Positions 3,926 through 54,613 of a DNA stretch of 64,000 nucleotides are shown in pieces (position 1 is the stretch's first letter; every line of letters starts with the position of its first letter). The position numbers were made by a program, and so were the translations under genes. Origin of the DNA: Spirulina major PCC 6313 (GTDB taxonomy: Bacteria; Cyanobacteriota; Cyanobacteriia; Cyanobacteriales; Spirulinaceae); assembly GCF_001890765.1 (NCBI RefSeq), contig NZ_KV878783.1, positions 4,802,771-4,866,770 of the forward strand. The letters run 5' to 3'. The notes beneath the pieces are model-generated. The model saw nothing but the letters and a program-made list of their open reading frames with translations. It searched no databases and was not told the origin of the DNA.

Positions 3926-4368
3926 TTACGACTCTATCTGATCCGGCTCAACGGGGACATCTTCATACACAGCGGGGATCGTGATTTCTAGATCGATGCT
4001 GTGGAGTCGGAAGGGCGATCGCGCCTCATCATAGCGTTCATATCGCCAGGCTTGATCCTCACGGCGAAAAATTTCTACACGCTGATATTGAGTGCTCACT
4101 AACACATATTCTTCAAGACTCGCCAAGGCTTGATAATCACTAAGTTTATCCCCCCGATCAAACTTTTCCGTACTTTCTAATAGTACCTCAATGATTAATT
4201 TAGGAAAACATTTATAAGTTTGAGTTTCTTGATCTCTTTGGTCACACGTTATAAATAAATCCGGATAATAAAAACGATTTTTTACCTCGATTCTGACCTT
4301 CAGAGCAGCAAAATAAACCCGACAATCCATTCCTCTAAGATGATTATGAATCAGGGCGACGAGATTAC
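3926..4368 (-). pseudogene. Uma2-family endonuclease-like gene, 5' end cut by an IS608-like insertion
   Basis: Uma2 proteins have a PD-(D/E)XK nuclease-like fold and are abundant in cyanobacteria; their role is unknown. From SGNLVALIHNHLRG onward this reads as a normal Uma2, with the core YYPDLFITC and PKLIIEVL, the strand carrying the acidic active-site residues, then YQALASLEEYVLV. The usual 50-60 N-terminal residues (the EYKSEYxxGE region) are missing. The open frame instead continues to 4441 through the left end of the transposon, giving an artificial N-terminus. The junction is exactly the TTAC site at 4365-4368. The remainder is not found on the far side of the element. Confidence 0.7.
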
Positions 4369-4470
4369 CTGAATAGACGATAGCTTGAAAGCCCTGTGGC
4401 TTTAGCCCAGGGATGAAAAGCAACGGCGGCTTTAGCCGCATTCTTACGCCAGATATGCTAGAATAAGGGG

Positions 4471-5665
4471 ATGATTGTACTTGAGTTCAAAGCACGGGTA
4501 AAGCCTGCCCAGGCTACCGCTATAGACGACGCTATCCGGACATCTCAGTTTGTCCGTAATAAGGCGTTGCGCTATTGGATGGATAGCCAAGATGTGGGCA
4601 AATACGACCTTAGCAAGCTCTGCAAAGCGTTAGCTGAGGAGTTTCCCTTTGCTAAGAAACTCAATTCCATGGCGCGTCAGGCTTCAGCAGAACGGGCCTG
4701 GAGTTCCATCAGTCGCTTCTATGAGTATGGCAAAAAGGGTATTAAGCCCGTAGGATTTCCCAAGTTCAAGAAGCATTCCCGCCTCGGTGGAGTACAAAAC
4801 CTCTGGCTGGAAACTACTGGGGCCGAAGCGCATCAAATTCACCGATGGCTTCGGGATTGGGGAATTGCGGTTGATCGGCACCTACGATCTGGCACGCTAT
4901 GACGAATCCCTGATTAAGCGAGTTCGCCTCGTTCGTCGTGCTGATGGCTACTATGTTCAGTTCTGCATCCAGGTTAATGTTCAGGTGCAGAGTGAGCCAA
5001 GTCAAAAAGCTGTTGGCCTCGACCTCGGTTTGCGGTATTTTATCGCTGCCAGCGATGGCACTGTGGTGGAAACGCCGCAGTTCTATCGTAAGTCTGAAAA
5101 GCGGTTAAACAGAGCCAATCGGCAGAAGTCCAGAAAGTACCGCAAGGGGGCAAAACCACAGTCAAGGAACTATCACAAGGCCAGGAACCGGTACGCCCGG
5201 AAGCATTTAAGGGTAAGTAGGCAACGTAATGAGTGGGCGAAGAGCATCGCCTACTGCGTCATCCAATCTAACGATTTGGTTGCTTATGTTGGCGAAGCCT
5301 GCACGAAGTGCATAGATTTAAATATAAAAGGGTTGGTTCGCAATCGGCATCTGGCTAAGTCGATTAGTGATGCGGGATGGTCAACGTTTCGCCGTTGGTT
5401 GGAGTATTTTGGTAGGAAATATGGGAAGGCAACGGTGGCCGTTCCTCCCCACTATACGAGCCAGGATTGCTCAAACTGCGGCAAGCGGGTACATAAGGCA
5501 CTCTCAGTCAGAACCCATCACTGTCCGCATTGCGGCTATGAGGCTGACCGAGATGTGAATGCTGCCATCAACATCCTGCGCCTTGGACTCACTACCGTGG
5601 GGCACACGGGAAGTTATACGCTTGGGGAGATTGGGCCTCTGGCTGAGTTGGAGCAATCCTGCTGA
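4471..5665 (+). pseudogene. tnpB: RNA-guided nuclease TnpB, frameshifted
   Basis: TnpB is the RuvC-type, omega-RNA-guided nuclease of IS200/IS605 elements. The N-terminal frame (4471-4783) gives MIVLEFKARVKP through GFPKFKKHSR; the rest continues in another frame as SVEYKTSGWKL. One extra C at 4782-4783 explains the break. RuvC-I is intact (VGLDLGLRYF), as are the zinc finger CSNCG...CPHCG and RuvC-III DRDVNAA. RuvC-II normally reads YEDL; here a net 24-nt insertion (5289-5312) replaces the glutamate context with VGEACTKCI. Two independent lesions make this copy very probably inactive. Apart from them it would be about 400 residues, normal for TnpB. Confidence 0.85.
5289..5312. repeat. 24-nt double-hairpin small dispersed repeat inside tnpB
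   Basis: TT followed by GGC-GAA-GCC (5291-5299) and TGCAC-GAA-GTGCA (5300-5312): two perfect mini-palindromes in tandem, each with a GAA loop. The related copies at 7.9 and 54.4 kb read straight through this point (VAQEDLN, VASEDLN), so the segment is an insertion. Its length is a multiple of three, so the frame is kept. It matches the style of the very small mobile repeats described in Nostoc. Confidence 0.65.
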
Positions 5666-5751
5666 GTTAAGTCCGGTCGATGAACCCAGAATCCCCGTCG
5701 CTTCAGCGCGGGGAGTGTCAAACTGCTAAAGGTGCAAATTATCACAGACCT

Positions 5752-7663: not shown

Positions 7664-8125
7664 GAAAATAGTGCGGGAGTCTGAAAGCCCCGTCAATTGA
7701 TTGCGGGGATGAAAGACGACACGAGCGACTTGAGTCGCCCTCCTTGGGCCAGTCGTGTTAGGCTAATTATCTTGAATTTCAAACGTCCAAGAACGATCAC
7801 AAGGCTAAAAACCGACAGGCCTGGAAGCAGTTAAGGGTAAGCAGGCAGCGGAATGAGTGGGCGGATTGCCGACTGCGTCATCCAATCTAACGATTTGGTC
7901 GCCCAGGAAGACTTGAATGTGAACGGGTTGGTCTGCGATCGGCATCGGGCTGAGTCGATAGTGAAGCGGGTTTGTATCCTGCGCCTTGGACTAACTACCG
8001 TGGGGCACAGGGGAAGTTATCCGCTTGGGGAGATTAGACCTCTGGCTGGGTTGGAGCAATCCGGCTCGGTTAAGTCCGGTGGATGAACCCAGAATCCCCA
8101 TCGCTGTCTTCGCGGGAAGTGTCAA
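7664..8125 (+). mobile_element. tnpB-deleted IS608-like derivative, copy B
   Basis: 462 bp between TTAC (7660-7663) and the terminal TCAA (8122-8125). The left end has the palindrome GCCCCGTCAATT..ATTGCGGGG. The middle keeps shreds of tnpB: QAWKQLRVSRQRNEWA, CVIQSNDLVAQEDLNV, RLGLTTVGH. The zinc-finger and much of the RuvC coding sequence are deleted. The last roughly 125 bases match copy A closely. Copy D at 54155 has the same deletion endpoints, so the deleted form itself has spread. Confidence 0.75.
7853..8086 (+). pseudogene. tnpB remnant in copy B
   Basis: The open frame starts VIQSNDLVAQEDLNVNGL, which is the RuvC-II region of TnpB with its glutamate (QEDL), and jumps after RHRAES to CILRLGLTTVGHRGSY, the end of TnpB. 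About 240 bases containing the zinc finger and RuvC-III are gone. It cannot encode a nuclease. The same chimeric frame is present at 54344-54574. Confidence 0.7.
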
Positions 8126-37010: not shown

Positions 37011-37292
37011 CCGCGAAGACAGCAACGGGGATTCTTGGTTCATCGACCGGACTTAACCGAGCCGGATTGGTCCAACCCCGCCAGAGGTCTAATCTCCCCA
37101 AGCGTATAACTTCCCCTGTGCCCCAATGCTTCCAGGCCTGTTGGTTTTTAGCCTTGTGATCGTTCCTAGACGTTTGCAATCCAAGATAATCAGCCTAACA
37201 CCACTGGCTCAAGGAGGGCGACTAAATTCGCTCGTGTCGTCTTTCATCCCCGTCAATTTATTGCGGGGATGAAAGACTCCCGCACTATTTTC
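37011..37292 (-). mobile_element. tnpB-less IS608-like derivative, copy C
   Basis: 282 bp. Read on the minus strand it starts after TTAC (complement of 37293-37296) and ends TCAA (complement of 37011-37014). Left-end palindrome and roughly 125 bases of right end are kept; nearly the whole tnpB is gone, the break being after QAWKH at the join to GGGGCACAGGGG. The right-end hairpin reads AATCCCCG..CGGGGAAT, longer paired than in other copies. Confidence 0.75.
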
Positions 37293-54154: not shown

Positions 54155-54613
54155 GAAAATAGTGCGGGAGTCTGAAAGCCCCGTCAATTGATTGCGGGGA
54201 TGAAAGACGACACGAGCGACGTTAGTCGCCCTCCTTGGGGCAGTGGTGTTGGGCTGGTTATATTGGATTTCAAACGTCCAAGAACGATCACAAGGCTAAA
54301 AATCGACAGGCCTGGAAGCATTTCAGGGTAAGCAGGCAGCATAATGAGTGGGCGGATTGCCTGCGTCATCCAATCTAACGATTTGGTTGCCTCGGAAGAC
54401 TTGAATGTGAACGGGTTAGTCTGGGATCGGCATCGGGCTGAGTCGGTAGTGAAGCAGGTTTGTATCCTGCGCCTTGGACTAACTACCGTGGGGCACAGGG
54501 GACGTTATCCGCTTGGGGAGATTAGACCTCTGGCGGGGTTGGAGCAATCCGGCTCGGTTAAGTCCGGTCGATGAACCCAGAATCCCCGTCGCTGTCTTCG
54601 CGGGGAGTGTCAA
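54155..54613 (+). mobile_element. tnpB-deleted IS608-like derivative, copy D
   Basis: 459 bp from after TTAC (54151-54154) to TCAA (54610-54613). Same deletion structure and very similar sequence as copy B, including the chimeric RHRAES..CILRLGL join, but with its own small changes (for example a short deletion near 54359). Flanks differ from B, so the deleted element moved as a unit. Confidence 0.75.

What the first reader, a model, noticed from the sequence alone, without database searches (positions are those of the whole stretch)
5289..5312. A 24-nt double-hairpin repeat sits in the RuvC-II motif of tnpB
GGC-GAA-GCC plus TGCAC-GAA-GTGCA interrupts the conserved Y-E-D-L that the related remnants retain. 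The frame is kept (net +24) but the catalytic Glu context becomes VGEACTKCI. It matches the style of cyanobacterial very small dispersed repeats and shows such a repeat inactivating a nuclease without breaking its frame.
Basis: partly seen in the sequence, partly recalled or inferred. Interest (0 to 1): 0.6.

Follow-up and report, generated by a model that had tools for sequence, protein, structure and literature searches.

The report
Tiny hairpin repeat in TnpB's active site
A 25-letter mobile hairpin repeat has split the code for the key catalytic residue of a transposon's RNA-guided DNA-cutting enzyme, and different repeats of the same kind have landed on exactly this letter in about ten lineages of the gene in other cyanobacteria.

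Summary
The genome has seven near-full-length copies of this IS: four carry the insert at the same nucleotide, three are empty. The 24-mer has four copies here, all in this tnpB; a fifth place, outside this IS, shows compensatory hairpin changes.

It is not a one-off. In relatives at least four different repeat types, two with further repeats nested inside, occupy the same nucleotide. A tree of 123 tnpB rows needs 12 filled/empty changes, at least 10 on well-supported branches. A distant TnpB subfamily is hit at the same codon. Sites follow a rule, YG-N-A(G) to YG-[repeat]-A(G), which the Tyr-Glu-Asp codons TAYGAAGAY match. In 388 genomes the exact 24-mer occurs only at this site (9 of 9 places), suggesting spread from tnpB to tnpB.

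Frame-keeping is not general: T3, T4 and nested forms break the frame, and the window copy has its own frameshift. Loss of nuclease activity is inferred, not shown.

The parts
5289..5313 (+). The inserted repeat, TTGGCGAAGCCTGCACGAAGTGCAT (25 nt replacing one base of the Glu codon, net +24; equally readable as 24 nt plus one substitution)
   Evidence: alignment of 4 filled and 3 empty copies; DNA fold
5291..5299 (+). Hairpin 1, GGC-GAA-GCC (GNA loop)
5300..5312 (+). Hairpin 2, TGCAC-GAA-GTGCA (GNA loop); arms covary in other copies: TGCGC/GCGCA, TGTCC/GGACA, TACAC/GTGTA, TGCCC/GGGCA
   Evidence: variants
5285..5288 (+). Left half of the target, TATG: Tyr codon and the G that began the Glu codon
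5314..5316 (+). Right half of the target, AGA
4471..5665 (+). tnpB, broken near 4782 by one extra base relative to the six sister copies; second part (4787-5665) holds OrfB_IS605 and Cas12f1-like_TNB domains
4369..5721 (+). The IS200/IS605-type element: follows TTAC (4365-4368) and ends in TGTCAA, as do all 7 copies
   Evidence: meaning of TTAC/TCAA as IS608-like cleavage sites is recalled
7786..8062 (+). Deleted relative of the IS; keeps Glu-Asp-Leu without the insert (QEDL)
54277..54550 (+). Deleted relative of the IS; keeps Glu-Asp-Leu without the insert (SEDL)

Best explanation
The feature is a member of a cyanobacterial class of very small mobile double-hairpin repeats (SDR-type) that insert at YG-N-A(G), replacing N. 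The Tyr/Val-Glu-Asp codons of RuvC-II in tnpB (TAYGAAGAY) supply such a target, so the catalytic Glu codon has been struck repeatedly, in about ten tnpB lineages and by at least four repeat types. The insert removes the codon of the nearly invariant Glu, which most likely kills the nuclease. IS copies persist and multiply all the same, because TnpB is not required for transposition by a transposase acting in trans (established knowledge of IS200/IS605, recalled). Once filled, the site also seems to spread between tnpB copies and species together with its particular repeat allele, by recombination or renewed insertion. Shown: insertion with empty sister sites, recurrence at one nucleotide, the target rule, the link of the exact 24-mer to this site in the genomes searched. 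Inferred: loss of cleavage, the enzyme that moves the repeats, how the allele spreads.
For: Filled and empty copies in one genome. Same nucleotide filled by T1, T2, T3, T4 and two nested forms. Tree: 12 filled/empty changes over 123 rows, at least 10 forced by starred branches; T1 alone 6. Same Glu codon hit in two genes of another TnpB subfamily in G093. Second site B in the same gene obeys the same join, AAG to [..CAT]AG. 59 distinct T1-type sites: -1 G 57, -2 C/T 57, +1 A 55, +2 G 36. Concentration at site A: 10 of 14 double-hairpin events against 17 YGNAG targets, p about 7e-9; 5 of 7 using only T2/T3 lineages, p about 2e-4; adding 6 palindromic inserts of another repeat family, 10 of 20 (9e-7) and 5 of 13 (0.01) (event counts by eye). 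Covarying hairpin arms. Copies spread although broken: 7 tnpB places in G093 carry T4, which shifts the frame. T2- and T3-type repeats also occur outside tnpB.
Against: The tree is of the quick kind and several changes lie among recombining G000 copies, so the number of independent insertions is uncertain. The exact T1 24-mer was found nowhere but at this site, odd for a freely moving dispersed repeat. With inserts of another family counted, the unbiased subset gives only p 0.01 over YGNAG targets. Two of six repeat types (T2, T3) do not fold as a clean double hairpin in the DNA model. No enzyme is identified. dN/dS between filled copies (0.12-0.18) is hardly above that of empty ones (0.06-0.15), so no relaxed constraint is visible.
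Confidence: 0.68

Rival explanations
1. Site-linked homing: the filled allele is copied from filled to empty tnpBs at this one site, by gene conversion or repair of a break in the Glu codon, rather than arriving each time by free transposition of a dispersed repeat.
For: 9 of 9 exact 24-mer places in 388 genomes are at this site, in diverged tnpBs of 5 genomes. The 25 nt are identical although the 30 nt to the right are only 0.47-0.67 alike. In G000 filled and empty copies intermix on the tree.
Against: No conversion tract is visible: the left 30 nt are alike (0.67-0.93), but as much so in empty rows (mean 0.85 over 98 of 107). Four or more different repeat types at the site need separate first insertions. 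T1-type relatives sit at many other YG-N-A sites.
Confidence: 0.25
2. Selection, not target choice: repeats land anywhere, and insertions at the catalytic codon are kept because they disarm the nuclease, in some cases leaving a full-length nuclease-dead TnpB that still binds DNA by RNA guide.
For: Intact frames through the insert in three G000 copies (397 aa), L067 (422 aa open frame) and L243; L081 has a 466-aa open frame that also contains a 135-nt insert. dN/dS of filled pairs stays low. Nuclease-dead RNA-guided TnpB relatives (TldR) exist (PMC13418256, abstract start seen in a listing).
Against: Many other changes would disarm TnpB, yet the same nucleotide is hit with the same join; the rule also holds at sites that are not active sites. 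Several fills break the frame, so no dead full-length protein is kept there.
Confidence: 0.12
3. The insert is tolerated: the V-G-E that T1 brings in frame replaces the lost Glu and TnpB stays active.
For: T1 gives V-G-E-A in frame in all T1 rows read; low dN/dS.
Against: The model of the filled window protein is poor at the insert (blocks of pLDDT 25-39; whole model 54.5, pTM 0.35), the empty relative L071 is confident through the Glu strand (about 89; 70.0, 0.64) (weak evidence, since the proteins differ elsewhere too). T2, T3 and T4 bring no such Glu at that place.
Confidence: 0.06
4. One old insertion inherited in tnpB, with loss or decay in the empty copies.
For: Same position everywhere.
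Against: 107 of 123 rows empty and filled rows scattered; different repeat types at the site; exact loss would have to restore the replaced A.
Confidence: 0.02

Closest known systems
Small dispersed repeats SDR4/SDR5/SDR6 of Nostoc and relatives (Elhai et al. 2008, Genome Res. 18:1484; paper not held, recalled; cited in PMC4390886, passages seen)
   Same: 21-27 nt, shared two-hairpin structure with compensatory changes, nesting in each other, mobility inferred; PMC4390886 says SDR5 inserts between the third and fourth base of HIP1 (GCG|ATCGC), which also reads G|A
   Different: Target here is the tnpB Glu codon, not HIP1; one base is replaced; one allele is tied to one site across species. Identity with a named SDR family was not tested
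REP/REPIN elements moved by RAYT transposases (PMC3116915, PMC3733652, passages seen)
   Same: Short palindromic repeats, non-autonomous, some tagged GTAG
   Different: REPs there are described as mainly extragenic and tagged at one end; here two abutting GNA-loop hairpins, inside genes, without a GTAG tag. No RAYT was looked for
IS200/IS605 TnpB, e.g. ISDra2 (PDB 8bf8, 8exa)
   Same: Host gene of the insert; OrfB_IS605 and Cas12f1-like_TNB domains; TTAC and TCAA at the ends as recalled for IS608
   Different: Glu of RuvC-II interrupted
TldR, nuclease-dead TnpB regulators (PMC13418256, listing only; otherwise recalled)
   Same: TnpB relative with a broken RuvC site
   Different: Here broken by an inserted mobile repeat in IS copies; no regulatory role shown

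Membership tests
SDR-type small dispersed repeat (defining features recalled from Elhai 2008) | Length about 21-27 nt | tested here: met
   25 nt by comparison of filled and empty copies
SDR-type small dispersed repeat (defining features recalled from Elhai 2008) | Two-hairpin structure kept by compensatory changes | tested here: met
   T1 and its variants fold as a double hairpin, several arm pairs; T2 and T3 do not fold so in the DNA model
SDR-type small dispersed repeat (defining features recalled from Elhai 2008) | Dispersed at unrelated places in genomes | tested here: met
   Family: 28 of 99 genomes, 59 distinct sites. In the window's own genome only 5 places, 4 of them one IS
SDR-type small dispersed repeat (defining features recalled from Elhai 2008) | Insertion shown by empty sites | tested here: met
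   3 empty and 4 filled copies; 107 empty rows in relatives
SDR-type small dispersed repeat (defining features recalled from Elhai 2008) | Nesting of repeats in one another | tested here: met
   L106, L147; L207, L208
SDR5 proper | Found within HIP1 (GCGATCGC) | tested here: not met
   Target is TATGAAGAC; so not filed as SDR5
SDR4, SDR5 or SDR6 by sequence | Match to the published consensus | not tested
   Paper not held
IS200/IS605 TnpB (host gene) | OrfB and zinc-finger (TNB) domains | tested here: met
   E 5.7e-18 and 2.1e-25
IS200/IS605 TnpB (host gene) | Intact RuvC Glu | tested here: not met
   Codon split in the window copy and 3 sisters; kept in 111 of 112 empty placements
TldR-like nuclease-dead TnpB | RNA-guided DNA binding without cleavage | not testable with these tools
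   Needs bench work

The most novel reading that the evidence does not exclude
A 25-nt DNA element behaves as a miniature homing element of the tnpB catalytic codon: in its exact form it is confined to that site, it passes between diverged tnpBs and species with its letters unchanged, and it repeatedly switches an RNA-guided nuclease off, sometimes leaving a full-length nuclease-dead TnpB.
Probability: 0.22. Interest if true: 0.85.

Novelty: new variant of a known kind. Interest (0 to 1): 0.6.

Why it matters
How elements of 20-30 nt move is an open question. A single nucleotide that has been filled in about ten lineages, with empty sisters about 95% identical in one genome, gives a concrete target rule and a natural test bed for the mechanism. 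It also suggests that the best conserved codons of a selfish nuclease can be a standing target for a still smaller selfish element.

Tried and rejected
Ancestral insert: rejected. Random insertion over tnpB: rejected, with the counts and their limits given under Best explanation; those counts are mine, by eye. I counted the G000 copies as one event. I left out of the 14 events six inserts of a different palindromic repeat family (in L144, L148, L141); one search repeats the test with them. Removal of the insert at RNA or ribosome level: considered, no support, not tested. Structure models: too poor at the insert for geometry. Rfam: no match in the window, L005 or L006. Viral contigs: 0 exact matches to a 28-mer. 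Plasmids: 20 records with a TnpB relative at E 1e-40, of which I opened 2; neither is filled at this site. Papers: the searches listed none on repeats in the RuvC-II codon, but Elhai 2008 is not held and may mention tnpB.

Full report
What is there. Window 5289-5312 is TTGGCGAAGCCTGCACGAAGTGCA, inside tnpB of an IS200/IS605-type element at 4369-5721. The window lies on contig C2 of a 5.05-Mb genome in 2 contigs. G002, of the same genus code, has a 26,188-base contig with the same interrupted tnpB as L107, from a 26,188-base contig of a MAG named Spirulina sp. S17.Bin059, so the organism is probably a Spirulina relative (inference).

Filled and empty copies. The genome has seven near-full-length copies of the IS. 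Four have the insert, three do not, and the join is exact: empty TATG-A-(A/G)GA, filled TATG-TTGGCGAAGCCTGCACGAAGTGCAT-AGA. So 25 nt replace one A, net +24. Three filled copies have an open 397-aa frame and the three empty ones 389 aa; the window copy has an extra base near 4782 and is broken for that reason too. All seven copies follow TTAC and end in TGTCAA, at different places, so filled copies have either moved or been converted since the insertion. The fifth repeat (C2:363291) has two compensatory changes and lies beside what reads like the end of another tnpB element (assignment by reading).

The same nucleotide in other genomes. I placed both halves of the RuvC-II region on all loci then held. 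Of 144 placements (many are one place fetched several times), 112 have the 3-nt empty spacing and 32 are filled. The fills: T1 TTGGCGAAGCCTGCACGAAGTGCAT; T2 ATAGCGCAGCGTGCCCTCTGGGCAT (Scytonema RU_4_4); T3 TAGACGCG(A/G)AGCGGCG(C/T)GCCGAAGGC (Spirulina MAG, Okeania); T4 TTCGCGCAGCGTGCCGTAAGGCA (G093); and two nested forms (Brasilonema L106, Scytonema NIES-4073 L147). T2- and T3-type repeats also occur outside tnpB in G032, G029 and G048. Of the 80 loci, 77 could be placed and 7 are filled (L081, L106, L107, L141, L143, L147, L149); L148, cut at its contig end, shows T3 too. One of the six search peptides was taken from the insert, so L149 (T1) may be favoured; the T2 and T3 loci are not. In G093 two genes of another TnpB subfamily are split at the same Glu by TTGGCGAAGCCTGTCCGAAGGACAT. 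In one search (59 genomes, E 1e-25; list cut by the tool) most listed matches have the length of empty genes, so filled sites are a minority.

How often. On a tree of 123 distinct rows (quick method, insert left out) 107 rows are empty and 16 filled; the filled state needs 12 changes, at least 10 forced by well-supported branches; T1 alone needs 6. Several lie among the recombining G000 copies. I therefore speak of about ten lineages: G000, L107, L141, L147, L106, L081/L143, L048, L055/L149/L154, L067, L152. L152 and L067 are long branches, so their place is unsure.

Target rule. Site B, upstream in the same gene, has empty CGTG-AAG-AACACG (one example) and filled CGTG-[..CAT]-AGAACACG. In 59 distinct sites of T1-type repeats, from 69 loci looked at (the others did not fit the search expression or were duplicates), -1 is G in 57, -2 C or T in 57, +1 A in 55, +2 G in 36. 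By reading those rows, 8 are tnpB site B, 4 tnpB site A, 2 the right-end hairpin of an IS, 2 clearly the GNA loop of another T1 copy and 6 more a like loop of what seems a related repeat. 93 of 112 empty placements read GAAGAY at the Glu-Asp codons, which fits the rule; a GAG codon fits with +1 G, as in L220. That GCGAAGC is an extraordinarily stable DNA mini-hairpin is recalled; one search lists papers using it (listing only).

Allele and site. In 388 genomes of the order the exact 24-mer has 9 places in 5 genomes, all at tnpB site A; of the two one-mismatch places one is at site A (G196) and one is not in tnpB (G357). The 30 nt to the right of the site are 0.47-0.67 alike between T1 lineages, the 30 nt to the left 0.67-0.93; empty rows average 0.68 and 0.85 (98 of 107 rows). 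So short-tract conversion and repeated insertion of one allele both stay open.

Function. The Glu codon is kept in 111 of 112 empty placements, GTC in one, and is invariant in the 23 empty relatives I aligned. The motif aligns with solved TnpBs such as ISDra2 and 9yyg, the latter with an eight-residue gap at the insert; its catalytic role is recalled. Open frames through the insert: three G000 copies, L067, L243, and L081 with a further 135-nt insert; L055, L149, L154 and L143 have short frames for other reasons, L152 and L155 are cut short, and T3, T4 and the nested forms are broken by the insert itself. dN/dS: filled pairs without the window copy 0.12-0.18, empty pairs 0.06-0.15. AlphaFold: filled 54.5/0.35, empty relative 70.0/0.64. 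I judge the nuclease dead but have not shown it.

Literature. Elhai et al. 2008 could not be opened; what I say of it is recalled, apart from the SDR5-HIP1 sentence read in PMC4390886. Passages only were seen in PMC3116915, PMC3733652, PMC6513891 and PMC4919922; the last was off topic. After the required check I lowered the novel-case odds from 0.25 to 0.22 and the main confidence by little, because of the added control with other repeat families.

Noticed in passing
window 7786-8062, 54277-54550, 37064-37170 (-), and about 19 places in G000 matching the last 125-150 nt of the IS: Family of deleted relatives of this IS that keep a piece of tnpB around RuvC-II and the right end, many copies at 81-95% identity to the IS's last ~150 nt; looks like a non-autonomous element spread by the IS.
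   Followed up: partly
30 nt upstream of window 5288 and the same place in relatives: The stretch ATCCAATCTAACGATTTGGTGGCCTAT is unusually alike between diverged tnpBs at DNA level (mean 0.85, neighbouring windows 0.54-0.78).
   Followed up: no
L005 around 1501, L065, L068: T1-type repeats at the same place of an IS right-end-like hairpin (CTGTACC..GGTCA and CTGTACTC..GAGTCA) in three genomes, G000, G003 and G006.
   Followed up: partly
L246, L203, L204, L205, L214, L218, L222 (G093): Seven tnpB places carry T4 at site A within 100 nt of a T1-type repeat (site B where read); an IS with two repeats and a shifted frame has multiplied.
   Followed up: partly
L144, L141, L148 (Okeania SIO2F4): Other palindromic inserts in tnpB, such as GTAGGGGCGAAT..CGCCCCTAC, at several positions.
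   Followed up: no
L008 1376-1501 (G000:C2:1269733-1269858): The copy at 1.27 Mb has its left end split after 23 nt by about 100 nt of other DNA.
   Followed up: no
L259, Nostoc sp. UHCC 0926 plasmid pn1: tnpB with a 57-nt in-frame insert shortly after the RuvC-II motif.
   Followed up: no
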